Shown here one piece after another: positions 3,001-55,051 of a DNA stretch of 64,000 nt; position 1 is the first letter of the stretch, and each line of letters starts with the position of its first letter. The position numbers and the translations under genes were made by a program. The notes under the pieces are model-generated. The model was not told where the DNA came from, did not search any database, and worked only from the letters and a program-made list of their open reading frames with translations. The DNA lies in contig NZ_JAKVPE010000001.1 of the NCBI RefSeq assembly GCF_022482365.1, positions 62,001-126,000 of the forward strand, given 5' to 3'. This DNA is from Limosilactobacillus sp. Lineage in GTDB: Bacteria; Bacillota; Bacilli; Lactobacillales; Lactobacillaceae.

Positions 3001-6000
3001 TACAGCACCAACCCGAAGAAGGTCGGCGATGCGATGACAGTCGCTGGTAAGACTGGTCAGACGGTCAACACTGGTCTGACGGTTCCAGCCGGCTACATCC
3101 TGGCTGATGGACAGACGCTGCCAACCACCTACACCTTCAAGGCCAGCGGCAACGATCCAATCGTGATCAAGCTGACCCACAATGTTGCCACCTCTAAGGA
3201 TTCATCATCCTCTGTTCGGACGCTGAAGTTCTACAACGAAGACGGCACTCAGGCCTCCGCAGATGTTCACCAATTTGCCGGACAAGCAGTTACGAATGAT
3301 CCACAACTCGTGAAGGAACAACATCCTGACAACACCAACGCAATCGGTTTCGACTACACTGGTGAGGACGACCTGACAACTGGCAAGATCCTGTGGCGTG
3401 ACTACACGCCAGCCAGCGGGACTTGGGACTCATACGCTATTCCGCAAAAGGCCGGCTACATCACGGTTGACCTTGCACCTGCTGACGTTGCTTCCGCACT
3501 TGCCGGTGGCAACATCAAGCAGAACATTGTCACGAGCATTCCTGCAAAGACTGACGTCCAGCATGATGAGTCTGAATCCGACACGACTACGTACATCACT
3601 TACCTGAAGTATGAAAACAGTACGTCGACCAGCCAGATCACGCGGACGATCAACGTTCACAACCCAGTGGATGGCACGACTACAACCACGAACCAGAGTG
3701 TTCAGGTTCAAAAGAACGTTAAGGTCATTCAGCTGAAGGGTGGCGTCACGATTGATATTCCTGACGACGACTGGACACTGAGCGACTCCACGAAGAACAG
3801 CTGGGCAAGCTTCACGGCACCTGACTTCGACGGCTACAAGCCGAGTCAGGACACCGTTGCTAGCCAAGTCGTATATCCAAACGAGACGACTAACACGACG
3901 GTCGACATCACCTACACGGCGGATGCTGCTTACAACCAGTACACTGCCAACATCAAGTACGTTGATGACGACAACAACGAAGCCCAGGTTGGCAACGAAA
4001 CAACCATCAAGGGCCGCGCTGGACAAACTATCCCAATTACCATCAAGGTTCCGGACAGTCGTTACGAACTGGCAACTAGTGAGACGAACCTGCCAACAAG
4101 CTACACCTTCGAGACGAGCGGCAATAAAGACATTACTATCCACTTGAAGCACAAGAAGATTAGTACTTCGACTGCTATCAACCTCAGTCGGGCCTTTGTT
4201 CCAGCAATCACCAAGACTGGTGAAACTGGCAATCTGAATGATGATGATATTAAGTGGAACATGCAATGGGATAAGCAAACCGATACGGCAACGCTCTACT
4301 ATGACCAAGATATGGTAACCAGTCTGATTACTGGTACCGATGTTGATCTGAAGAGTGGGATCACGGCACTCAATCCAGATGATGTTCTCAGTGCTGCACC
4401 AACCATTGCTGGGTACGAGATCAACCCAGGCTATGGCACTGTCAAGGGATGGGCTCAGTCTGAACAAGACAACTACGCTAAGAACCCAACGCTTGATAAC
4501 AACACTTTCTCTGCCTACACTAAGGCACAAGTGCTTGAAGCTATCAATAAGGAACACTTGACGTCGATGACAACAGACTTCACGTACACCAAGTTCGTTC
4601 CGTATGTTCCATACACGACGCAAGCAGATACCCATACGGCAACGCGGATGATTGAGCTGCACCTGCCATCTGGCAACACGACATATGTTCCACAAAAGGT
4701 TGAATTCACACGGAACATCAACGTTTTGTCTGGCACGACTCAAAAGCTGAATGATGGCAAGGAGACTGCATGGACGGTTGCTAGCGGTTCTGCTACTAAC
4801 TGGCCAGAATACACGCCAGAAAACGTGGACGGCTACGCACCAAACCCGGCAACGGTGGCTAAACAAGATGTCACGGCTAATACCGATGACACGGTGGTTG
4901 ATGTCTACTACAACCAGACGACCCAAAAGGCCACGGTCAGCTTCGTTGATGACGACAATAACGGCGCTACTGTAGGCAACTCATACAGCATCAAAGGAAC
5001 TTACGGTGAGGTTAAGAGTACCAACATCAGCAGCAACATCCCGACTAACTACGTCCTGAGTTCGACGCAGCCGGATGCTAACTACGGCAACACCTGGACG
5101 GTCGGCAAGAGTGATGTTTCGATCACCGTTCACTTAAAGCACGCAACTCAGGTCATCAATAGTCAGACGAAGAACGTGGTTCGGTCGATCTACCGGCAGT
5201 TCAAGGATGCCAACGACAAGGCTGAAAAGCTCGTGAACACCCAGACGGTTACCTTCGTCCAGAACACGACGAAGGACCTGGTAACTGGCAAGACAACGAC
5301 CAGTGACTGGAAGAGTGACAACCCAGTTTGGGATGCCCAAACTGCTACCGACATTCCGGGCTACACGCTGGAAACTGATCACAGTTCAGCTCCAAAGGTA
5401 ACGGTTACTTCTGATACCGCAGATGCCAAGGTAGTCTTCATCTACGACAGCAACTCGGGCAAATTGCCAGTTCAGTTCGTGGATGACGACAACAACCAGG
5501 CAGTAGTTCTGCAGTACGACGTTCCTGTCAAGACTGGTCTGACGGTCAAGACTGGGAAGCCGGCAACTGACGGGGCAGAGCCAACGACCTACTACACTGA
5601 CGAGATTCCAGCAGGCTACACGCTGGTACCAAACCAGAATCTGAACTCAACCTTCACCTGGAACGGGACTGACACGCTCAGCCCAATGGTTGTCCACCTG
5701 ACTCATGGGACGGCGACGAACAGCACGACTGAGTCCTTCACGCGGTACATCTACATTCAGCTTGGGTCCAACCCGTCGACGGTGCTGACCAGTCAAACGG
5801 TCACCCTGACGAAGACGACCACGGCTGATGCTGCAACTGGGACAGTCAAGTCGACCACCTGGTCCACTGGCTACTTCGCTCCGGTAGATGCACCAACTGA
5901 AAAAGGCTACACGCTGGCTAGCGATAGTCCGAAGTCGGCTGCCTTCACTACGATTGGCGGCTCTTCCACAACGCCAACCAACCCAGCGGACGTCACCTTC

Positions 6001-9000
6001 AAGTACAATGCCAACGAGACCGTCAAGATTATCTATGTTGATACTGGTCTGATGAACGGTGCCATCATCTTGAGCGGCAGCAATAGCACCCTCAGCAGCA
6101 CCTCCCTGAGTGGGGTTGCGGATGGGAAGAGTGTCGCTACCAGCATTCAGGCTCCGAGTGACAAGTACGTCATCAGCAGCGTTCAGCAAGACGGTAAGGA
6201 CTTGACCAATTACGCTAACTACACCTTTAAGGACGGCACTAATGGCGACATTACTGTCTACCTGAAGCATGCGGTCAAAGATTTCAAGATGCCGGTTCAA
6301 TTCAAGCGGGAACTCATTCCACAAACGCAGAAGCTTGAAAACAACCAGCTGAAAGATAATTACCAAGAAGATGATGCACTTTCGGAAACCGTCACAGGTT
6401 CTGCCAATATGGAGACTGACCTGACAAATAACAAGAACTACGTTGTCAATTTGGACTCCAGTACTTTCAAGAGCCTTGATGAGCTGACTGTAGACCAGAT
6501 GCCAAAATACGATGGCTTTAGCTTGCCAGAAGGTCAGACATTAGCTCAGATTATCGATAGTCAGTTCCCAGTCAGAATACCCGGTGACGTTGAAAACAGT
6601 GCCTACACTGTTGCGTTAAGTGGTTCGCAGATTGAAAAGATTATAGAAGAGCTTGGTGTGACGCCGGGCAATGAGATCTCTAGTGATGTTATTAAGGGTT
6701 CGACGGACACCGGTCAGTATATCGGTGAGGAAATTGCCGCAACTATTAAGTACAACAACAAGACGTACCCTGAAACGTTCCAGTTCATCGATAGCACGAC
6801 TAATAAGGAAATTACCGATGCCGTTTACACGGACGATAAGGGCAGTACCTCGACGCTGCCGGGTGAACAGTCAATGTCTGTTCAGTATCTGCACCCTTAT
6901 GGCAGTTCTTCCGGTGCTTACGGCATCACTGATCTGATTCAGAAGTATCAATCGCTTGGCTACACGGTTGTCAAGAATGGCTATGCGGATAATGTCAACA
7001 CTCGTCAGGATCTGAGCAGCCACACCTACCAGATCGTTCTGGTCAAGAGCAGCATGCAGGATAGTCATACCGCCACGCGGAAGATTACGGTCAACAATGT
7101 CGATGGTACGTCGACGGTAACGTCGCAAGTGGCCAAGGTCACGCGGAGCGCCGTCTGGAACCAGGCAACCCAGCAGTATGATTATGGCGATTGGAACACC
7201 GGCACTTGGGAATCCGTCACGCCAGCTGCTGTTACCGGCTACACGCCAGTGATCCTGGTCGATGGCAATAGTGCCAACAGCATTCAAACTGTCACGGTCA
7301 CTAACAAGACGCAGGATTCCAACGTTGTAGTCAGCTACACGCCAACGGAGTACGATGACTCAGTGGTCATTGAAGATCAGGACGTCAAGGATGCCGATGG
7401 CAACAACAAGGTCTTAGACACGCTGACGATTCCTGGGACGTATAACAAGACGATCGATACGACGGATGTCAATACCCAGCTGAATAATTATGAGGTAGGA
7501 GGCTATGAGGTTGTCAGAAACGAATTAGCCAACCCAACTACTCAGCCGGCTGAAGCCCATACCTACACGATCATCTTGAAGCACAAGACCCTGGATGTTA
7601 CTGACAGCGCAGCCCCAACACGGACGATCACGGTTAACACGCCTGTAACGGTTGATGGCTCAACTTCAATTTCAGCGTCAACAGTTACTCAAACAGTGAA
7701 ATTCACCCGGACGGGGACTAAAGACTTAGTAACGAAGGACACTAATTGGAATGCTTGGTCGGTTGCTACCGATTCACCAGCTCAGAATTGGGCTGAATAC
7801 GATGCACCAACTATTGAGGGCTACACGGCAAAGCCAGCAAGCGTAGGTGCATTGGTTGTCAAGGCCACAACGGCAAACGCAACTGCTACGATTGACTACA
7901 CGGGCAATGATCAAAGCATCAACATTACTTACGTTGATGATGACGAAAATGGCGCTCAAGTTGGCAATGTCCAACCTTTGACTGGTAAAACTGGTGAGAC
8001 TGTTCCGATGAACATTGCAACGCTGGATGACTACAACATCAGCAGTGTCCAGCAGGGGGACAAGACGTTGACCAGTTATGCAACGTACACGTTCCTGCCA
8101 AGCGGCAACCAGAATGTTACGGTTCACTTGACGCATAAAGTCCAGACCGTAGCGGTTTCACTGACGTACACTCGGGATTATGAGACCAATTTAATGAATC
8201 CAGACTTTAAGACTGTAAAGGAAGAGTCCGGAAATAAATATAGTGCTCAAAACTATACGGGGACAGCCCATGTGAAAGTTGATCAAGTTACTAAGACGAA
8301 GACACTGGTTGACTATGAGATCAATAATCAGCAATCAATTCCGGCTGTTGATACATCAAAATTCCCTAAGATCGATGGGTACTCAAATTCTGCTTGGATT
8401 CAGGGTCAACTTATCTCGGATGCAAAACAATCTGATTATAACAATATTCAGCTGATGGCCATCCCAGCATCGATGCTGAAAACAGCCCTAGAAAATCAAA
8501 TTGCTTCTGCAAGTGATCTTACGGCAGGATTAGAGTTTAGTAATGACGCTCAGGTTCGCTACTATCCAACTCTGTATGCAGACACGATTACCTTCAATGA
8601 TACTAGTGGCAACAGTTTGACCGGTTCCCTCAGTCTTGGAAAGACTTACAATTGGCAGGATCAAGAATATCATAGTCACGTCGAATCAGGCGGAATTGCC
8701 TACACCGATACAATTACCAGTGCTGACAAGAAGAGCGTCACCGACGAGATTGCTGCTCTGGAAGCGCAAGGCTACCAGCTTCAGCAGGACGACCAATACA
8801 CGAAGTTCACTTCGCTGACGACGCAGCCAGCTGAAAAGGTAACGATCAACCTGACCTTTGCCAAGGTTTACAACGACACGGTTAACTTTGTTGATGCGGA
8901 TGCTAACAACAAGTCAATCAATGATTCCGTAACGCTTTCAAACTTGAAGGCGGGGGATACCCTTGATTTGACGAACGTCAACACTATAATTGCTGCCTTA

Positions 9001-12425: not shown

Positions 12426-12628
12426 GTAAGCACCCAATAACGATACGTATTGAAAAAGATAAGGCTTGAGCCACCAAAATCAGTGGCCCAAGCCTTTTTG
12501 CCTTAGATATGACACTCCTGTTGTACTGTAAGCACCCAATAACGACACGCATTGAAAAAATTAAGGCTTGAGCCACCAAAATTAGTGGCCCAAGCCTTTT
12601 TCCTTAGATATGACATTCCTGTTGTACT
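12426..12628. repeat. Tandem duplication of the IS66 left end
   Basis: Two diverged copies of about 102 bp (12426-12527 and 12528-12628) lie head to tail. Each carries the terminal GTAAGC repeat, a hairpin (AAGGCTTGAGCCACC...GTGGCCCAAGCCTT) and the last codons of tnpC (QECHI and stop). They differ at several positions, including one single-base deletion, so the duplication is not recent. The target duplication lies outside the outer copy. Confidence 0.85.
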
Positions 12629-13298
12629 TGCTCTGCCCATGGTAAATAAGCCTCAATGGCTTCCCCATTGCGGTTAGGTAAATAATCGAACAGATACTGA
12701 AAGTATTTGTAGATGTTTAAATGATTTTGTTTCGCTGTGCTTACGATTGTGTAGTAAATTGCGCTTGCTTTGGCACCGCGAATGCTTTTCGCAAACAAGC
12801 TATTCTTGCGAATCAAGGTTGATGGTCGAATAGCTTGTTCAACCGGATTATTGGTTAGCGGTACTTCGCCATTTTCAAAAATTCGGTAAACTCGTGACCG
12901 CAAGTTGATGGCATTTTGGATGGCGTTCCGTAATTTTCCTATCGGGCTGATTACGTGACTGATATAGTCATAAAACTTATCCATCAGTGGCCGCATTTTC
13001 TCTTGACGCTGCTTCAGTTTTTCATCAGGGTTCTGATATTCAAGCTGATTTTCCGTATGGAAAATCGGTCGTAATAAATTTACTGCCTGTTGAGCTACTG
13101 AATGCTTAGCTTTCTTTAGTTCGAGCGTCTTAATGATATTAGTGAATTCCCGCCGGATATGAACCAAGCAAGTACCGAAGTTAGCGGTTGGGTAGAGCTT
13201 ATCACTATAACCGCCATAGCCGTCACAGACGATTATTCCTTCGTAGTCACTTCCCATGATTTCGCCAATCGCTTTTCCAGAACGAGTATTAAAATAAT
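12604..13298 (-). pseudogene. tnpC: IS66 transposase tnpC, C-terminal part (split by IS30)
   Basis: This is the C-terminal half of an IS66 TnpC transposase (DDE_Tnp_IS66 type), with conserved stretches such as VCDGYGGYSDKLY, CLVHIRREF, NNPVEQAIRP and FAKSIRGAKASA. The segment is open back to the IS30 border at 13298; the ATG at 13257 is internal to the original gene. Removing IS30 and one copy of its 13-bp duplication joins it in frame with 14591-15437, giving a 1,542-nt gene of 513 codons plus stop, a normal TnpC length. The protein is inactive as it stands. Confidence 0.9.
13286..13298. repeat. IS30 copy 1 target duplication, left
   Basis: GTATTAAAATAAT, 13 bp, is repeated exactly at 14578-14590 on the far side of the IS30 element, inside the IS66 tnpC gene. 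Confidence 0.9.
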
Positions 13299-14577
13299 CC
13301 TAAATTTCAAGAATAAGTTAGCCACTGGACTCAAATAAATAATACTGACCAATTGATTATTGGTTGATGGAGCTGTGATATCTCTTGGTAGAAGGCCTTA
13401 CGATAGATATCCATTGACGAATGTCCATTAAACATAGCTCGTGGATAGTGATTCATCCAATCATTAGTCGCTATGATCTGAGCACTACTATAGTTATTTA
13501 TAGCTTCACCTTTGGTAATCTCCTTGCGGAGAAACCGGTTATTGATCTCATTGGATCCACGTTCCCAAGGGGAATACGGATCAGCATAGAAAACATGATC
13601 GTGAACTTGTGTTAACTCACTAAATTCTGAACCGTTGTCAGAGGTTATTGTCTTAAAAATGCGATAGTAAGCATCTGTGCCCATTTTCTGGCGCAAATTT
13701 ATAAAGAACTGATTTACTGCATGCGCAGTTTTACCAGCAATTTTACTCGTGATATTAACTCGTGAAAGGCGATCAGTCATTACTAGTACAACACTGTCAT
13801 TACCGTTTTTCTGTCCCTGAACTGTATCCAGTTCCCAATGGCCAATTTCGGACCGTTGGTCCGCAGTTTGAGGTCGTTGAGCAATATTAGGCCCTAAGCA
13901 CCTTTTAGCTTGCGGATGAGTTTGATGATGCTTACGTTTAGGTTTTTCAAAGAGGTCTAAATTGGACGTACGAAGCACACCCTCATTAATCCATTGATAT
14001 AAAGTTACAACCGACTTTGGGATCAGGGTGCCATCATTCATTAAATCTCGAGCCTTATAAATAACCGCTTGTGGGGAGTAATGGTGGTCGTCAAACTCAC
14101 CAAGCATTAGCTGATCAGCTAATCGTAAAAATTGCTTTGAAGAATAATATAAGCGACGACGACCAGAATGGCGGTGATGTTCAAGATATGTGGCCTGACC
14201 AGCTTCATAACTATAGATGTAGTAAGAATATTCGTAAATCTTACCATTAGATTTTTGACGACGAAGTTGGCGGACCGTACCACGGTTGAGCTCGTTATTA
14301 ATTGTTTGATGATTAACTCCTAATTGGCGACCAATTGCGCGATTGGAAAGTCCTTGCGACTTTAAAGTCGCAATCATCACACGTTCTTCTTTAGTAAGAT
14401 GAGCATTCTTTTTATGAGTAGTCAATAAAATAGTAGACATGGTATCATTTAAGTGCGTCATTTGACGGACATCCTTTCATATAGGTTTGGTTCACTTAAT
14501 ATGATACCTGATGTCACGCCGAATGGCGTTTTTTATTTACCACCAACTGGGTGGCTAACTTCATTCTATAATCTACC
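13299..14577 (-). mobile_element. IS30-family insertion sequence, copy 1
   Basis: This 1,279-bp element has borders fixed by comparison with the copy at 61690-62968 and by flanking 13-bp duplications. The imperfect terminal inverted repeats share GTTAGCCAC about 18 bases in from each end. It holds one transposase gene on the minus strand and is inserted in IS66 tnpC. Confidence 0.95.
13331..14461 (-). CDS. IS30-family transposase, copy 1
   Basis: The 376-residue transposase has an N-terminal helix-turn-helix region (LTKEERVMIATLKSQGLSNR and onward, residues about 22-60) typical of the family. A DDE integrase core follows: D212 in HWELDTV, D275 in TSDNGSEF and E305 in RGSNE. The protein catalyses cut-and-paste or circle-mediated movement of its own element. 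The sequence is identical to the copy at 61722-62852 and looks intact. A second in-frame ATG (MSTILL) eight codons on is an alternative start. Confidence 0.93.
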   Translation of the reverse strand: MTHLNDTMSTILLTTHKKNAHLTKEERVMIATLKSQGLSNRAIGRQLGVNHQTINNELNRGTVRQLRRQKSNGKIYEYSYYIYSYEAGQATYLEHHRHSGRRRLYYSSKQFLRLADQLMLGEFDDHHYSPQAVIYKARDLMNDGTLIPKSVVTLYQWINEGVLRTSNLDLFEKPKRKHHQTHPQAKRCLGPNIAQRPQTADQRSEIGHWELDTVQGQKNGNDSVVLVMTDRLSRVNITSKIAGKTAHAVNQFFINLRQKMGTDAYYRIFKTITSDNGSEFSELTQVHDHVFYADPYSPWERGSNEINNRFLRKEITKGEAINNYSSAQIIATNDWMNHYPRAMFNGHSSMDIYRKAFYQEISQLHQPIINWSVLFI

Positions 14578-14590
14578 GTATTAAAATAAT
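14578..14590. repeat. IS30 copy 1 target duplication, right
   Basis: This is an exact second copy of the 13-bp sequence at 13286-13298. Confidence 0.9.
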
Positions 14591-15437
14591 GGAAAACTGT
14601 CAGGTGATGGCGACTAAATTCCTTAACGGTGCGGGTCGCCCAAAAATAACAGTTAGTTTTATGCTCCTCCAGTACCGAAATCGGAGTTTCATCCATGTGA
14701 ATAACCCTTTCGGTCCGCATTAATTCGATTAATTTTTCATAGAGTGGTTGTAAATAAACCTCACTGACTTTAATCACATTGTTCGCAATTAACTTATCGT
14801 CAACCGGGAACCCCAACTCAGTCCAAAGCTTCAACTGACGATGAAAGGGCAATGCTAAGTTAAATTTGAGCTCACACACTTTAGCCAGAATACTACTTGA
14901 AAAATAGCTATGTGGCAGAAGCGTTCGGGGAGCTTCACTATTAACCAAGACATCTTTGCCTTCTGGATGACATTGTAAACATTTGTATGTTTCCTGAAAA
15001 AGATTTCGACAATATAATTCCGCAGGCTTCAATGTTGCCTCACGACTATAAAGACGCTGACTGATCTTATGCATCTCTTTGTGGCAGTACGGACACCGTT
15101 TGTCCGCAAGCGGTAAGACTTCGTTTACTTGTGGTAAATTATCCAAAAAAGCGGCACGCTTCCCGCTAACCTTTGGTTTGCGGTGACGTACCACTTGCTT
15201 TCGGTCAACAGTAATAACCTCAGTAACGCTCTGACCTTGGCCTTGCATTGCTGAAAGCTGTTCTTCATTAAATAATGATTGCTGACCCTTCGTTATTGTT
15301 TCAAAAACTTCAGTTTTTTTCCCATATAATTGGTTTTGCTGCAGTTTGATGATTGCAGTCAATTTTGCAATCTTTTGATTGGCCGCTTGCAGTTGCTTCT
15401 CAAGCTCCGCAATCCGTTCATCAGCTGAAGTCGTCAT
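14578..15437 (-). pseudogene. tnpC: IS66 transposase tnpC, N-terminal part (split by IS30)
   Basis: This is the N-terminal part of IS66 TnpC. It has a leucine-zipper-like coiled coil at residues about 5-45 (AELEKQLQAANQKIAKL), a zinc-ribbon-like CPYCHKEM segment and an HMDETP motif carrying the first catalytic Asp. The ATG at 15437 follows a good AGGAGG. The open frame runs past 14578 into IS30 and stops at 14514; those last codons are IS30 sequence, not transposase. The rest of the gene lies at 12604-13298. Confidence 0.9.
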
Positions 15438-15505
15438 AGTACGTCACCTCCTTTTGACCAATAATTCTTTATTATTATATCAAAAGAACAACGTTTTAAA
15501 CAGTA

Positions 15506-15871
15506 CTAATATAGGCTCCCCGGTTGAGCTTGATGGACACCCGGAGTTGGAAATGGATTAAGTCCTTTCAGTAATCGCCTTAGCTGTTTAGTGGAAAGTA
15601 ATCGGGCTTCTGAGCTTACTCGTGGCCATTTCAAGCGACCATTTTCGAAACGCTTATAGAGCAGAATAAATCCTTCACCGTCCCAGAAGAGTGCTTTGAA
15701 ACGATCATTACGTGAACCGCAAAATAGAAATAGGGAATTACTATAAAGTTCGATTCCATAATTTTCGGCAATCACCATTGCCAAGCCATCAATGCCTTTT
15801 CTTAAATCAGTTTTTCCGCAAACAATATAGACATGATCGGGATCATACCAATTAACGAGCATAACGGACAA
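15506..15871 (-). CDS. tnpB: IS66 accessory protein TnpB
   Basis: The 121-residue protein has the classic IS66 Orf2 pattern: VYIVCGKTDLRKGIDGLA near the N-terminus, LFLFCGSRNDRFKALFWDGEGF in the middle and KRFENGRLKWP after it. IS66 elements need TnpB with TnpA and TnpC for efficient transposition, though its biochemical role is unclear. The start overlaps the end of tnpA by 20 bases, suggesting translational coupling. The gene appears intact. Confidence 0.93.
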   Translation of the reverse strand: MSVMLVNWYDPDHVYIVCGKTDLRKGIDGLAMVIAENYGIELYSNSLFLFCGSRNDRFKALFWDGEGFILLYKRFENGRLKWPRVSSEARLLSTKQLRRLLKGLNPFPTPGVHQAQPGSLY

Positions 15872-16147: not shown

Positions 16148-17023
16148 ATGAGCAATCGAGAACAGGAGATGCAGGCCGCCGCGGCCAAATGGGAGCGGCT
16201 GACGCTGGCGGATGACCGGATGTTTGGGATGGTCATGGAGGACGAACAGATTTGCCTGGAAGTGCTGCAGCGGATTTCCCCGGAGCTGAAGATCAAGCAA
16301 GTTCAGCAAGTGGCGACGCAGAAACAGGTTAACACTTCGCTGGATGTCAAGTCGCCGCGCTTTGATGTCTTTGTGCGCGACGATCAGGGACGCATTTATA
16401 TTCTGGAAATGCAGGTGAAGAATAATCATAACTTGCCTTTCCGGGTGCAGTACTATCTGGATCACGCGGATGTGCTTAAGCCAGGTGATGAATATGACGA
16501 GGAACACGTGAACCCGATTTATATAGTCTTCTTTTGTGATTTTGATTATTACGAAAGGGGGAAAATGTGTTATCGTTTTAGCTTGAAAGAAGATGATGAA
16601 CCCGACTTATTAGCTGGGGTCGGTTTGCGGTTAGTGGTGTTTAACGCTAAGGCAAAAGACTTTCGTGGTAAAATAAAGCTAGCAGGATTCTTGCGGCTGA
16701 TGCACAACGAGCGGACGCCGGAGGATGAATTAGCGGAACGGATTTACCAGAAGATGGAACGAATTAAGCACGATCCGGAAAGGCGGGAGAGCTTTATGAA
16801 ATACGAATTGGATTTGATGGATGCGCGGAAAGAAGGCCGCGACGAAGGCCAAGCGATCGGCTTGAAGAATGGTGAGGCAATTGGCCTTAAGAAAGGAATT
16901 ACTGGAACAACCAAAGTCCTAATCGGCCTCAAGCTAGATGACGAAACGGTTGTTCATAAATTGATGGATACGTACAATCTTTCTTCTAAGGAAGCATGGA
17001 ATTATCTAGAGCAAGCACGATAG
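16148..17023 (+). CDS. Rpn-family PD-(D/E)XK nuclease / putative transposase
   Basis: The 291-residue protein matches the Rpn/YhgA-like, PD-(D/E)XK transposase-like group (PF12784 type). The nuclease core is visible: D73 in RFDVFV and E87-x-Q89 in ILEMQVK, with the usual ExQ variant, followed by YYLDHADVLKPGDEY and IVFFCDFDYY. The C-terminal part is charged and ends in repeated GLKNGEAIGLKKG segments, common in this family. Relatives are DNA endonucleases that promote RecA-independent recombination; some are linked to phage defence. The ATG follows a G-rich ribosome binding site. IS66 sits 13 bases upstream, so the native promoter has probably been displaced. A decayed second copy lies downstream. 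Confidence 0.85.
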   Translation: MSNREQEMQAAAAKWERLTLADDRMFGMVMEDEQICLEVLQRISPELKIKQVQQVATQKQVNTSLDVKSPRFDVFVRDDQGRIYILEMQVKNNHNLPFRVQYYLDHADVLKPGDEYDEEHVNPIYIVFFCDFDYYERGKMCYRFSLKEDDEPDLLAGVGLRLVVFNAKAKDFRGKIKLAGFLRLMHNERTPEDELAERIYQKMERIKHDPERRESFMKYELDLMDARKEGRDEGQAIGLKNGEAIGLKKGITGTTKVLIGLKLDDETVVHKLMDTYNLSSKEAWNYLEQAR

Positions 17024-17068: not shown

Positions 17069-17080
17069 CATTTTATAAAA

Positions 17081-17150
17081 GGCTTTCATGATAAAATGAG
17101 GTTAGCAGGATTCCTGCGGCTGATGCACAGCCAGGGCATCATTTAGGCAA
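17081..17150 (+). pseudogene. Remnant of a second Rpn-family gene
   Basis: This stretch is nearly identical to part of the intact Rpn gene (about 16662-16735). It repeats the block TTAGCAGGATTCCTGCGGCT and the following GATGCACA with few changes. Only about 70 bases survive, with no open frame of useful length. It suggests the locus once carried two related genes, or a tandem duplication that later decayed. Confidence 0.65.
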
Positions 17151-17192: not shown

Positions 17193-17221
17193 TTGAATTT
17201 TGTTGATAGTTATAGTACATT
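17193..17221 (+). promoter_or_regulatory. Promoter-like sequence before the 34-bp repeats
   Basis: TTGAAT and TACATT are spaced by 17 bases. Initiation would fall near 17228, a few bases before the first repeat. Confidence 0.45.
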
Positions 17222-17234
17222 TTGTATGCAGGAT

Positions 17235-17336
17235 AAGGTCACAGAACCTACCAAAACTGTTTTATATAAAGGTTAGGGAGCCTATCAAAACCCTTTTATA
17301 TAGAGGCCACAGGACCTATCAAAACTGTATTACTGC
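17235..17336 (+). repeat. Three tandem 34-bp repeats
   Basis: The units are 17235-17268, 17269-17302 and 17303-17336, with an exact 34-bp period and no spacers. Units 1 and 2 agree at 27 of 34 positions, and units 1 and 3 at 25 of 34. The invariant core is CCTA-Y-CAAAAC. Units 1 and 3 have ACAG/CTGT arms, while unit 2 has AGGG/CCCT at the same positions. Confidence 0.85.
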
Positions 17337-17346
17337 AATATTGGCT

Positions 17347-17375
17347 TGGCTGGTGCAATTAACCAGCTTTTTTTA
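17347..17375 (+). terminator. Terminator between the 34-bp repeats and the ATPase gene
   Basis: GCTGGT (17349-17354) pairs with ACCAGC (17362-17367) and is followed directly by a run of seven T. Confidence 0.75.
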
Positions 17376-17407
17376 TTTGCCTGTAAATTCGTAAAGATTC
17401 ATTTTGC

Positions 17408-17474
17408 AGATATAAAGAGATATAAAAATTGAAAGAAGATATAAAAAGATATAAAATAGAATCAAAGATATAAA
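17408..17474 (+). repeat. Five phased AGATATAAA motifs upstream of the ATPase start
   Basis: Exact copies of AGATATAAA start at 17408, 17418, 17437, 17447 and 17466, so the spacings are 10, 19, 10 and 19. That is two doublets one helical turn apart, repeated with a 29-bp period. The last copy adjoins the AAGGAG ribosome binding site. The phasing suggests repeated binding of one protein to one face of the DNA, or a regulatory element in the leader. Confidence 0.8.
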
Positions 17475-17488
17475 AAGGAGTGAGGATA

Positions 17489-18583
17489 ATGGACAATCCT
17501 TTTAATCCGAGCTTTGGGATGCAACCGACCGTTCTTTTAAATCGTGACCAAATTTTAAGTAGTTTGGTTGAGGACATTAAGCGCCTTACCACCCCGTACC
17601 GAACGACGCTGATTTATGGAGCACGGGGAGTTGGAAAGACGGTCTTCATGAACGCAGTCGGCAGTCGGATTGACCAGGACCCACAGTGGACGACGGTTCA
17701 TTTGATTATCGGTGAAAATATGGTTGGCCGGCTAACCGAAATGCTATATCAGCAGACCACTGGTAAATTGCAGAAGCTCTTTCGCGAGATTGCAGGGGTT
17801 AACCTCAACTTTGGCGGGGTGGGTGTTAAATTTGATATTAAGGATGCTCAAACGGCCAACTATCAGTATCTGCTAAGCCAGATGTTAAAAATCATGCAGC
17901 AACACCAGCAGAAGCTTCTAGTAATGATTGATGAGGCCCAGGATGTTCCGGGGATGGTGGAACTCGCTTCCGTGTATCAAGTCATGATTAGCCAGGGCTT
18001 GCCAATCTCGATCATCATGACCGGCCTGCCTAAAAACGTCCAAGAGCTGCAGAATAACCATGTGTTAACTTTTCTTTTGCGAAGTGGGCGCATTAATCTT
18101 TCACCTTTGGACTACTATGACATTCGTGCCCAGTATCAGCGGGAATTAAGCAAACGTGATCCCGAGATTGATCCGATGGTGGTGCGACGAATTGCGCAGT
18201 TAGCAGACGGGTATGCCTATGCCTTCCAGCTGCTCGGCTACTTAATTTGGCGAAGCCCTGACAAACGGATTACAGTGCAGACGATCAATGCGGTGCTGCC
18301 GGAGTATCAGGCGCAATTGAGCCGAAACGCTTATAGCAAAATGCTGGAGGAGCTGTCGCCGGTTGATCAGCAGTTTGTGATTGTAATGGCGAAGGCGCCA
18401 ACAGACCCCGTTTCGGCTGCCTACCTCGGTGCTAAGCTCAACAAGAAGCCAGGCTACGTGGGGGTATACCGGCGGCGGTTAATTGACAGTCAAATCATCG
18501 TGCCGGCGGGCTATGGAATGGTTAAATTCGCTCTACCACTATTTAAGGAATTCCTGATTGATGATGGGCAATATTTGATATAA
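17489..18583 (+). CDS. AAA-family ATPase of unknown role
   Basis: The 364-residue protein has a P-loop ATPase core. Walker A is GARGVGKT at residues 44-51 and Walker B is LLVMIDEAQD at 143-152. A sensor-like segment (ISIIMTGLPKNV) and an arginine-containing loop (FLLRSGRINLSPL) follow. The C-terminal third looks like a winged-helix region (SPVDQQFVIVMA...VGVYRRRLIDSQIIV). This architecture is common to AAA ATPases of the ExeA/Orc-like kind found in mobile or defence loci; the substrate is unknown. The ATG at 17489 is preferred over an in-frame GTG at 17480 because AAGGAG at 17475-17480 is correctly spaced for it. The gene is AT-richer than the chromosomal core and stands behind two repeat families. 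Confidence 0.75.
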   Translation: MDNPFNPSFGMQPTVLLNRDQILSSLVEDIKRLTTPYRTTLIYGARGVGKTVFMNAVGSRIDQDPQWTTVHLIIGENMVGRLTEMLYQQTTGKLQKLFREIAGVNLNFGGVGVKFDIKDAQTANYQYLLSQMLKIMQQHQQKLLVMIDEAQDVPGMVELASVYQVMISQGLPISIIMTGLPKNVQELQNNHVLTFLLRSGRINLSPLDYYDIRAQYQRELSKRDPEIDPMVVRRIAQLADGYAYAFQLLGYLIWRSPDKRITVQTINAVLPEYQAQLSRNAYSKMLEELSPVDQQFVIVMAKAPTDPVSAAYLGAKLNKKPGYVGVYRRRLIDSQIIVPAGYGMVKFALPLFKEFLIDDGQYLI

Positions 18584-18648
18584 TTTTTTCGTATAATTTT
18601 GTTTCTTTTCCGTATTTACTAGTCAGCAAATAAAAAGAGGTGATCTTG

Positions 18649-19095
18649 GTGGATGCATTTACTGTGGACAAAGAATTGGACCAGCTTAATAAGCGCTGGG
18701 CAAAGTGGGGAAGCGAACAAACAGAGTTTAAGCGAGTGGACGGCCATACAATTCAGGTTCTTACTCCATTTACGGACGCCTTTGACGATGGCATCTTGTT
18801 TGAGATTGTTTCCGATGATCACGGAACATATTCTGTTACTGACAAGGGCTATACTATTTGGAATCTCGAGACCAATGGGATCAACGTTTCCCGGCAGGAA
18901 TCGAATCGTTACCAGCTTCTGAATTCAATTGTCAGAGCCCATCAATGTTCGATTACAGATACTAAAGAAATCAAAAGGGATGATTTGAAGTTAGCGGATT
19001 TACCCCAAGCAATCACGGATTTTATTCAAGTTTTGATTAATGTATCCGGCATTGCTTTCCTAAATAGCGGGGATCCCCAATCTGACCCCCGATAA
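18649..19095 (+). CDS. DUF1828-like protein, probably C-terminally truncated
   Basis: The product of about 148 residues has a GHTIQVLTPFTDAFDDGILFEI...YSVTDKGYTIWNLETNGI pattern, as in DUF1828 proteins, which are found near phage and mobile genes and have no established function. Full-length relatives usually carry a further C-terminal domain (DUF1829). Here the frame ends soon after VSGIAFLNSG, and the stop codon lies inside a perfect 11-bp hairpin, as if the 3' part had been lost. The GTG at 18649 fits the AAAGAGG site best; GTG 18640 and TTG 18646 are alternatives. It follows the ATPase gene by 65 bases and may be cotranscribed with it. Confidence 0.55.
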   Translation: MDAFTVDKELDQLNKRWAKWGSEQTEFKRVDGHTIQVLTPFTDAFDDGILFEIVSDDHGTYSVTDKGYTIWNLETNGINVSRQESNRYQLLNSIVRAHQCSITDTKEIKRDDLKLADLPQAITDFIQVLINVSGIAFLNSGDPQSDPR

Positions 19096-21213: not shown

Positions 21214-21322
21214 CAGAAATCGTTTAGCAATTGACATCGAACAGATTCGTTGGTAGTTGCTAAGGAGTACTTCATTAAAGCAGCGTTTCGCCGTGCCCAC
21301 ACCGAGACCCTGCTTTTTTTAT
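21214..21322 (+). ncRNA. Structured leader with terminator upstream of trmL
   Basis: A predicted RNA of about 105 nt begins at the promoter and ends in a rho-independent terminator (AAAGCAG-C-GTTTCG pairing with CGAGAC-C-CTGCTTT, then T7; 21277-21320). Upstream, TTAGCAA (21224-21230) pairs with TTGCTAA (21257-21263), enclosing a CGAA/TTCG hairpin. The terminator stands between a dedicated promoter and trmL, so it could be an attenuator or riboswitch, or it could end a separate small RNA. It does not match the T-box, lysine, or other leader classes recognisable by eye. Confidence 0.5.
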
Positions 21323-38415: not shown

Positions 38416-38447
38416 GTCCAGATCTGAACTATAGTGCTCTAATAAAA

Positions 38448-38672
38448 CGTTGAGGAGAATTGAGAAGGTCCTAATGATTCAGCGAGCCGGCAGGTGGTGT
38501 GAGGCCGGCATTCAGGGATCTTCTCTGATCGGCTCCGAGTGACCAGCTTAAATTCAGTAGGCTGGTTCGGTTCATTACCGTTAACCAATGCCTGAGGAGG
38601 TCTTTTGGACCTTGAATTTGGGTGGTACCACGAATAGCTTCGTCCCATGCGGGATGGGGCTTTTTTTATTGG
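38448..38672 (+). promoter_or_regulatory. T-box leader controlling ileS
   Basis: This is a tRNA-sensing T-box. Stem I is formed by GAGAAGGTCC (38462-38471) and GGATCTTCTC, with the GCCGG/CCGGC hairpin carrying the loop motif. The conserved bulge appears as TGGGTGGTACCACG (38619-38632) and an intrinsic terminator follows. Unacylated isoleucine tRNA should stabilise the antiterminator and allow ileS transcription. Candidate isoleucine specifiers are ATT at 38510 or ATC at 38518; I could not decide between them by eye. Confidence 0.92.
38636..38669 (+). terminator. T-box terminator of ileS
   Basis: AGCTTCGTCCC pairs with GGGATGGGGCT around ATGC and is followed by T7. It competes with the antiterminator that uses the T-box bulge. 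Confidence 0.9.
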
Positions 38673-54642: not shown

Positions 54643-54854
54643 TGCTAAGGACTCCTTGCGAGCGATAATTAGACTTACTAATTATTGCTAAATTATTTTA
54701 ACCGAATTTTAACATGGAACTTAAAATAAGCAAGCCGTTTTATTTCATCAACCCGATAGAATAACGTTTTACTTCATATAAGCAACTCATTTAATTTGTG
54801 AAAAATTAATTTACCCGCTTGACTTTCTCATTATTTGGTATAAGCTATAAACAT
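54643..54854. promoter_or_regulatory. AT-rich intergenic region between lysC and the lysA riboswitch
   Basis: The lysC side carries an AAGGAGT ribosome binding site and a TAATTAG/CTAATTA inverted repeat (54666-54684). Several TTAAAA and TAAAAT sequences near 54690-54730 could be its promoter on the minus strand. On the lysA side TTGACT (54819) and TATAAG/TATAAA (54839-54851) are present with non-ideal spacing. Nothing coding is visible. Confidence 0.5.
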
Positions 54855-54856
54855 AA

Positions 54857-55022
54857 ATCGAAGAGGCGCAGCCAACACTAGTAAGCAATCGGAGCCAGCC
54901 ACGCAAGGATGATTGCCGAACAGGGCGGCTGCCGAAGCGCTTAGTCTGGCAGGGCTAGGTTGGCTGGGGCGTGGCCTAATAAGTCACGGACTGTCGCAGG
55001 ACACATAATCAGCCTGCGTTGC
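54857..55022 (+). promoter_or_regulatory. Lysine riboswitch (L box)
   Basis: The conserved blocks of the lysine riboswitch are present in order: AAGAGGCGC at the start, AGTAA, GGAGCC, GGATGATTGCCGAA, GGCTGCCGAAGC, CTGGCAGGGCTAGG, TTGGCTGGGGCGTGG and GGACTGTCGCAGGA. Lysine binding should favour the terminator at 55052-55090, shutting off lysA-dapH-dapL-dapA-dapB. Confidence 0.92.
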
Positions 55023-55051
55023 GCTATCGACAAATTAAATGGATAATTAAC

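What the first reader, a model, noticed from the sequence alone, without database searches (positions are those of the whole stretch)
17193..17375. Three tandem 34-nt repeats with covarying stems, arranged like a type III antitoxin RNA
Three spacer-free repeats have an exact 34-bp period. Positions 7-10 and 23-26 of each unit are complementary: ACAG with CTGU in units 1 and 3, AGGG with CCCU in unit 2. Two pairs therefore changed together (C-G to G-C, and A-U to G-C), which points to selection on RNA pairing. A conserved AGG (2-4) can pair with CCU (13-15) across that stem, making an H-type pseudoknot per repeat. A promoter-like sequence precedes and a rho-independent terminator follows, then a protein gene. 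That is the layout of ToxIN/AbiQ-type loci. The downstream gene is an AAA ATPase, not a ToxN-like RNase, so this would be a new pairing or a different kind of repeat RNA.
Basis: partly seen in the sequence, partly recalled or inferred. Interest (0 to 1): 0.8.

Follow-up and report, generated by a model that had tools for sequence, protein, structure and literature searches.

The report
Antitoxin RNA that lost its toxin
A Lactobacillus-type bacterium carries the RNA "antidote" half of a known toxin-antidote system, three folded repeats in a row, but the toxin gene that should follow it is missing, so the RNA is either a leftover or a stand-alone antidote against toxins brought in by mobile DNA.

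Summary
Confirmed: three spacer-free 34-nt repeats at 17235-17336, each able to form an H-type pseudoknot. In 15 distinct units from seven loci the second stem pairs in 60 of 60 cells, and 3 of its 4 pairs show double changes. Homologs settle what it is. In Lactobacillus kefiranofaciens the same three repeats and terminator (140 of 156 aligned columns identical to the window) are followed by a ToxN gene (PF13958, 1.7e-33). Five further loci with this array type carry toxN. The window is therefore a type III (ToxIN-family) antitoxin RNA gene whose toxN is missing: homology ends just after the terminator, and no ToxN was found in the genome. The downstream ATPase is not its partner: the array model has no hit in 29 fetched loci of ATPase homologs. 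A second toxin-less array lies in another genome of the same family (L079). Whether the orphan is a decaying remnant or a retained antidote against incoming ToxN is open: 23 of 24 stem pairs are intact, but the promoter match is weak and transcription is untested. New variant of a known kind; the new-pairing idea is rejected.

The parts
17193..17221 (+). promoter-like sequence: TTGAAT (17193-17198), 17-nt spacer, TACATT (17216-17221); 6 nt before the GCAGGATA start of the array
   Evidence: 8 of 12 consensus matches; the best-scoring match in L075 and L079, and a TATAAT in L074, also lie 6 nt before G(C/T)AGGATA. Weak: 39% of shuffles reach 8 with free spacing, 2.3% at fixed spacing; not listed by the scan
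17228..17231 (+). 5' strand (GCAG) of a possible closing helix P0 that brackets the array
   Evidence: pairs with CTGC 17333-17336; relatives GCAGG/CCTGC (L074, L079) and GTAGG/CCTAC (L075, both sides changed); by hand
17235..17268 (+). repeat unit 1; stem 1 17236-17239/17246-17249, stem 2 17241-17244/17257-17260 (ACAG/CTGT)
17269..17302 (+). repeat unit 2; stem 1 17270-17273/17280-17283, stem 2 17275-17278/17291-17294 (AGGG/CCCT, two pairs changed on both sides against unit 1)
17303..17336 (+). repeat unit 3; stem 1 17304-17307/17314-17317 (its innermost pair, 17307 with 17314, is C-A and does not pair), stem 2 17309-17312/17325-17328 (ACAG/CTGT)
17333..17336 (+). 3' strand (CTGC) of the possible closing helix P0
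17348..17368 (+). intrinsic terminator of the antitoxin RNA, T-run to 17374
   Evidence: the same hairpin in L074 upstream of toxN
17377..17407 (+). position where toxN starts in the relatives; here the sequence is no longer similar to L074 (junction)
   Evidence: homology to L074 ends at 17376; no ToxN found in the genome (also 35, 45, which had no positive control)
17408..17475 (+). AGATATAAA direct-repeat ladder (pairs 10 bp apart, 29-bp period) that goes with the ATPase gene, not with the antitoxin
17489..18583 (+). AAA ATPase gene (364 aa); unrelated neighbour, not the partner

Best explanation
The feature is an orphan antitoxin RNA gene of the type III (ToxIN-family) toxin-antitoxin kind. 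A promoter (inferred) should drive a short RNA of about 145 nt that starts near 17228 and ends at the terminator (17348-17374). The RNA folds into three H-type pseudoknots, one per 34-nt unit (supported by covariation), perhaps bracketed by a short closing helix. In complete relatives, readthrough of the terminator expresses ToxN, an RNase that cuts this precursor into single units and is then held inactive by them (established for ToxIN, PMC5086642; inferred here). In the window the toxN gene is gone and the sequence joins an unrelated ATPase gene. If still transcribed, the RNA would stay unprocessed and idle, and would bind and neutralise a matching ToxN arriving on a plasmid, integrative element or phage. 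That last step is inferred, not shown.
For: Same array plus same terminator followed by ToxN in L. kefiranofaciens, 140 of 156 aligned columns identical (PF13958 1.7e-33). The same array type is followed by ToxN in L075 (1.1e-23), L062 (1.1e-35), L082 and L083 (2e-34) and L084 (2.1e-15 for the part on the contig). The covariance model built from four arrays, L062 not among them, finds L062 at 8.6e-14, and L082/L083 in a second family of the order at 1.6e-15 and 7.2e-15 (E-values rough). Stem 2 pairs in all 15 distinct units and 3 of its 4 pairs have double changes; covariation score 0.333 against 0.204 shuffled, 0 of 500. No ToxN in the window's genome by PF13958 (with positive genomes in the same searches); two ToxN proteins of relatives also found nothing (no positive control in those). 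A second toxin-less array is in G266/L079.
Against: Transcription is not shown and the promoter match is weak. The window has one unpaired stem cell in unit 3 and a G-A mismatch in the closing helix, and unit 1 of the other orphan (L079) has lost most of the conserved second loop, so slow decay is possible. Loop lengths differ from the solved ToxI RNAs, so the assignment rests on homology to arrays beside ToxN, not on fold identity. The TenpIN toxin model was not run and the CptIN search had no positive anywhere. The genome check covers one strain only.
Confidence: 0.88

Rival explanations
1. Decaying remnant: the array is simply what is left after a recombination removed toxN. It is not selected and perhaps not transcribed. 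A toxin can be lost harmlessly while its antitoxin cannot, so orphan antitoxins are expected as passing stages.
For: Toxin loss must come before antitoxin loss (reasoning). In L075 the toxN frame has no ATG/GTG/TTG at the start position, which looks like an earlier step on the same road. The window has one broken stem pair and a weaker closing helix. In L079 unit 1 the conserved CCUA and A-rich loop have turned into a run of U. A relic of the upstream nuclease gene lies at about 17078-17137 (read by eye), a sign of local rearrangement.
Against: 23 of 24 stem pairs are intact in the window, the same as in one complete locus (G506/L083, whose unit 2 has one unpaired cell). The terminator is intact. 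In L079 both stems of unit 1 still pair, with a G-C to A-U double change in stem 1.
Confidence: 0.6
2. Retained anti-addiction or counter-ToxN RNA: the array is kept because it protects the cell, or a resident element, from ToxN carried by mobile elements.
For: Stem pairing is kept in two separate toxin-less arrays. ToxIN of this subtype lies near a partial MobL-type relaxase in L075 (PF18555 3.2e-11 over 48 residues). Precedent: expanded pseudo-ToxI repeats of phage PhiTE suppress ToxIN-mediated abortive infection (PMC3475682, passages read).
Against: Only two orphan loci. No expression data. Too few stem substitutions to test selection. In the PhiTE paper's overexpression rescue assay a single pseudo-ToxI repeat and two of three whole loci did not act as antitoxins, so ToxI-like repeats need not work.
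Confidence: 0.25
3. New type III-like pair with the AAA ATPase as toxin or effector.
For: Adjacency and the order repeats-terminator-gene only.
Against: No array-model hit in 29 fetched loci of ATPase homologs. Five of six close homologs instead share an AGATATAAA ladder directly upstream, and a 10-of-12 promoter match lies in the window's ladder (although promoter hits there are at chance number). Homologous arrays elsewhere precede ToxN.
Confidence: 0.03
4. Chance tandem repeat or a repetitive DNA element without RNA function.
For: Rfam has no match, but Rfam also gives nothing above its thresholds on the complete arrays tested, so this says little.
Against: Homology to arrays beside ToxN and covariation on both stems.
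Confidence: 0.01

Closest known systems
ToxIN of Lactobacillus kefiranofaciens ATCC 43761 (L074; found here, PF13958)
   Same: Three repeats in the same order of stem-2 types (ACAG, AGGG, ACAG), same terminator, 140 of 156 aligned columns identical
   Different: Has a full toxN directly after the terminator; the window has none. Its unit 2 has a 3-nt insertion
ToxIN of Bacillus thuringiensis (ToxI_Bt) and AbiQ/antiQ (host Lactococcus recalled) (PMC5086642, its section 3 read)
   Same: Repeat length and number: 34 nt x 2.9 and 35 nt x 2.8 against 34 nt x 3 here; both belong to the ToxIN family
   Different: Toxin present; repeat sequences not compared here
ToxI of E. coli (PMC8860590, the two structure sections read)
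   Same: H-type pseudoknot with a 25-nt core, a 4-bp stem 1 with two middle G-C pairs, adenines in the second loop
   Different: The G5/A6 loop and the U:U:G triplet described there are not seen in this unit; loop 1 is 1 nt here (by hand)
CptI of Eubacterium rectale (PMC4627078, passages read)
   Same: One-base loop 1 and an A-rich long loop 2
   Different: 45-nt units and a CptN toxin; the toxins of this array type match ToxN in Pfam and no NCBIfam model, CptIN included
Pseudo-ToxI repeats of phage PhiTE (PMC3475682, passages read)
   Same: Toxin-less ToxI-like repeats; expanded copies suppress ToxIN-mediated abortive infection
   Different: Phage-borne, 1.5 repeats in the wild type; ours is chromosomal with three full units. 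[quoted passage not shown]

Membership tests
Type III TA locus (definition in PMC5086642, its section 7) | tandem array of nucleotide repeats | tested here: met
   3 x 34 nt
Type III TA locus (definition in PMC5086642, its section 7) | Rho-independent terminator after the repeats | tested here: met
   17348-17368; same hairpin in L074
Type III TA locus (definition in PMC5086642, its section 7) | ToxN-type toxin gene after the terminator | tested here: not met
   Homology to L074 ends just after the T-run. No PF13958 match in G000 (other genomes positive). No match with two ToxN proteins of relatives (no positive control). CptIN model: 0 of 201 genomes and no control positive. TenpIN model not run
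Type III TA locus (definition in PMC5086642, its section 7) | promoter upstream of the repeats | tested here: inconclusive
   8 of 12; not listed
ToxIN-family antitoxin RNA (the RNA alone) | homology to arrays that precede a ToxN gene | tested here: met
   six loci with toxN: L074, L075, L062, L082, L083, L084
ToxIN-family antitoxin RNA (the RNA alone) | each unit forms an H-type pseudoknot | tested here: met
   covariation on both stems; permutation control, (computational only)
ToxIN-family antitoxin RNA (the RNA alone) | U:U:G triplet and G5/A6 loop of the solved ToxI (E. coli) | tested here: not met
   not in the unit sequence when compared by hand with PMC8860590
ToxIN-family antitoxin RNA (the RNA alone) | processed into monomers by ToxN and inhibits it | not testable with these tools
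   needs RNA and growth assays
CptI antitoxin | paired with a CptN toxin | tested here: inconclusive
   toxins of four relatives match no NCBIfam model at E<=1, CptIN included, and the CptIN model rang nowhere, so there is no positive control; the toxins do match PF13958 ToxN

The most novel reading that the evidence does not exclude
Toxin-less ToxI arrays are a recurring, maintained class of bacterial immunity RNA: chromosomal pseudoknot arrays that disarm ToxN carried by plasmids, integrative elements or phages, invisible to toxin-led surveys. The window and L079 would be the first two chromosomal examples that I know of.
Probability: 0.22. Interest if true: 0.72.

Novelty: new variant of a known kind. 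Interest (0 to 1): 0.48.

Why it matters
The published surveys of type III systems that a review describes start from the toxin protein (PMC5086642, its section 7), so an antitoxin RNA without its toxin cannot be found that way. Here searches that started from the RNA found two such arrays among eight with a readable downstream region. If they are active, they are a simple form of resistance to a defence and addiction system, testable with one plasmid pair. The unit alignment and covariance model also describe a ToxI subtype with a one-base first loop that the Rfam searches run here did not recognise.

Tried and rejected
Rejected: the ATPase as partner. Rfam as an arbiter: silent on the window array, and on seven loci, six of them with a ToxN beside the array, only four matches far below their thresholds. 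Nested MFE folding as a test (z -0.41). The L080 hit (24 nt, no repeats around it) and the L085 hit (single unit, 8.4 bits, inside an open frame) are chance. Of 22 viral stretches only L062 holds real units, and of 10 genome contigs stretches only L074 and L075 do; both judged by eye from the letters around each match. Alignment A1 misplaces L079 unit 2, and A4 misplaces both units with insertions (L074 unit 2, L079 unit 2). I dropped these two of 21 units for the count; one search kept both, among 15 units before L082/L083 were found, with the same outcome (98.2% paired). A test of selection on the window array was not made, as there are too few stem changes. BLASTN of the array against plasmids and phages gave nothing. 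Protein searches with the L074 toxin found only distant ToxN (below 60% identity) in six plasmids and nothing in phages or viral contigs. With the L062 toxin, 55 plasmids and 2 phages matched, also below 60%; I did not look at the arrays there. Of nine loci from the ToxN search that were given to the array model, only L033 matched; where one search found repeats beside the others, they have 35-36-nt periods and other sequences. Literature: seven full-text searches of the held PMC library (in one search one term matched 'toxin' at large). None of the listed titles and abstract beginnings showed a chromosomal orphan type III antitoxin RNA; (orphan, type III, ToxI, toxin-antitoxin, antitoxin RNA together) returned 0 papers. 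Subscription papers are mostly not held.

Full report
The observation. The window holds three head-to-tail 34-nt units at 17235-17268, 17269-17302 and 17303-17336. A fourth stem-1 pair, 5 with 12, pairs in units 1 and 2 and not in unit 3 (C-A). So 23 of 24 stem cells pair. In 1000 permutations of the alignment columns, searching every placement of two 4-bp stems with loops of 1-3, 0-2 and 4-9 nt, none reached 23 and the best was 22. A terminator-like hairpin follows at 17348-17368. The promoter is the weak point. TTGAAT-N17-TACATT has 8 of 12 matches, which 39% of shuffles reach with free spacing and 2.3% at the one geometry seen in relatives. The scan does not list it, and that scan's promoter hits (2, against 2.4 in shuffles) are at chance level.

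What it is. I searched for the tandem unit while leaving the second stem open. In viral contigs one of 22 stretches, L062, has three 33-nt units with stem 2 as ACGG/CCGU, a terminator-like hairpin, and then a ToxN protein (PF13958, 1.1e-35). In the collection of 84,980 species genomes the pattern gave 10 stretches, of which two are real. L074 is Lactobacillus kefiranofaciens: same three units in the same order, same terminator, 140 of 156 aligned columns identical to the window, then ToxN (1.7e-33). L075 is Limosilactobacillus portuensis: same array, with a ToxN frame (1.1e-23) that has no ATG, GTG or TTG where the toxin should start.

Distribution. A covariance model of four arrays (R1) was run on 397 genomes of the family (2 matches: the window's genome and G266), 395 of the order (5 matches) and 200 of the class (1 match, the window's own); these sets overlap, and the stricter filters used there can lose weak matches. 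New loci are G533 (L082) and G506 (L083), both with an intact ToxN frame (2e-34), and G627 (L084), a related subtype with the start of a ToxN at the contig end (2.1e-15). The model also finds L062 (8.6e-14) and, weakly, an array in L033 that runs into the contig end. Of nine loci with this array type, eight have a readable downstream region: six carry toxN (L074, L075, L062, L082, L083, L084), and two do not (window, L079). Four of the nine (window, L074, L075, L079) built the model.

The toxin is missing. Homology to L074 ends at 17376, just after the terminator's T-run. PF13958 finds nothing in the window's genome (with other genomes positive in both searches). Two ToxN proteins of relatives also find nothing at E<=10, but those searches had no positive control. 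In L079 (G266) the array is followed by a broken short frame that looks HicB-like to me (by eye; recalled label), and no ToxN is found in that genome. G266 is a draft of about 120 contigs, 99% complete.

Covariation. I aligned 21 units from seven loci and dropped two with insertions (L074 unit 2, L079 unit 2). The remaining 19 units are 15 distinct sequences. Of 120 cells, 98.3% pair against 91.8% in shuffles (0 of 500). Four of eight pairs have a change on both sides (1 of 500 shuffles reaches this). The covariation score is 0.333 against 0.204 (0 of 500), and slid controls give 0.160 or less. Two measures do not stand out: the number of further pair types (9 against 8.9), and the count of pairs with double changes in the control slid by -1, which is also 4, although with 4 cells instead of 8 and 32.5% paired. 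The tool warns that related sequences can exceed shuffles without structure. The strongest point is plain: stem 2 occurs as ACAG/CUGU, AGGG/CCCU, ACGG/CCGU and ACAA/UUGU, each time with the matching partner.

The ATPase. Its homologs occur in 37 of 50 genomes of the genus, the window's own included. The array model has no hit in the 29 other loci fetched from that search, L003-L031. These are the best match of each of 29 further genomes, not every match listed; L018 has no upstream sequence, and L015 and L017 have only about 230 nt of it. Among the six close homologs, L003, L005, L006 and L030, and with one pair L007, share a ladder of AGATATAAA repeats upstream, which the window also has at 17408-17475; L004 lacks it. 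The best promoter match of the region (10 of 12) lies in that ladder. The ATPase is an independent neighbour.

How it most likely works. Shown here: homology to ToxI arrays, pairing by covariation, terminator-like hairpin, no ToxN found. Inferred: transcription from the weak promoter into an RNA of about 145 nt, pseudoknot folding, and binding of a matching ToxN from outside. Established elsewhere: ToxN cuts its antitoxin into units and is held by them, and the terminator between them keeps toxin expression low (PMC5086642, its section 2 read). Antitoxins are specific for their toxins (its section 4.3). Expanded ToxI-like repeats of a phage suppress ToxIN-mediated abortive infection, although a single repeat and two of three whole phage loci failed in an overexpression rescue assay (PMC3475682, passages). 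Remnant or kept antidote cannot be decided here. Against a kept function, L079 unit 1 has lost most of the conserved second loop; for it, both stems of that unit still pair. I give 0.6 to remnant and 0.25 to a kept function; these two are rivals only about why it is there, not about what it is.

A structural remark. By the loop lengths, this subtype has a one-base first loop and a seven-base A-rich second loop. The E. coli ToxI structure has a longer first loop with conserved G5 and A6 and a U:U:G triplet (PMC8860590, two sections read), which this unit lacks. CptI has a one-base first loop (PMC4627078, passages), but the toxins here are ToxN by Pfam; they match no NCBIfam model at E<=1, and the CptIN model had no positive control. 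A short closing helix around the array (GCAG/CUGC here, GCAGG/CCUGC in L074 and L079, GUAGG/CCUAC in L075) is suggestive on four sequences only.

Novelty. The published definition of a type III locus demands the toxin, and the surveys described in the review start from it (PMC5086642, its section 7). A marine survey counts 26 orphan type III toxins, and the passages I read name no type III orphan antitoxin (PMC12654330, passages). I found no paper on chromosomal orphan type III antitoxin RNAs in the listings of seven searches of the held library. I rate the array a new variant of a known kind, and the interest moderate because decay is the simplest explanation.

Noticed in passing
window 17408-17475; L003, L005, L006, L007, L030; L008-L010: The AAA ATPase family often has a ladder of direct repeats right upstream (AGATATAAA, pairs 10 bp apart with a 29-bp period; L004 lacks it). 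More distant homologs show similar ladders with other letters (AGATCTAAA in L008, AGTATAAA in L009 and L010, by eye). It looks like a self-operator that changes together with the protein.
   Followed up: partly
window 18640-19095: Gene after the ATPase encodes a DUF1828 protein (PF08861 5.8e-13) that matches the PADLOC candidate defence model PDC-M24B (3.6e-18).
   Followed up: no
window 17078-17137: Stretch that looks like a relic of the Rpn-type PD-(D/E)XK nuclease gene at 16148-17023, seen by eye; hints at a rearrangement just before the array.
   Followed up: no
window 12604-15871: An IS30-type transposase gene (13331-14461) lies between the two parts of an IS66 transposase gene. The stretch 13331-16043 matches plasmid records of Limosilactobacillus only (14 of 14; the 8 listed rows are the IS30 part), which suggests the genus of the window.
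   Followed up: partly
L075 toxN (minus strand, frame 5789-6172 and upstream): ToxN frame of Limosilactobacillus portuensis is open through its N-terminal part but has no ATG, GTG or TTG at the start position; possibly silenced or weakly translated.
   Followed up: partly
L033 2632-2787: Array of a related subtype (GAGUU units, 34 nt) that reaches the contig end, on the strand opposite to the ToxN gene of the same contig.
   Followed up: partly
window 21220-21321, 38441-38650, 54853-55035: Rfam matches over the gathering score: 23S-methyl motif, T-box leader, lysine riboswitch.
   Followed up: no
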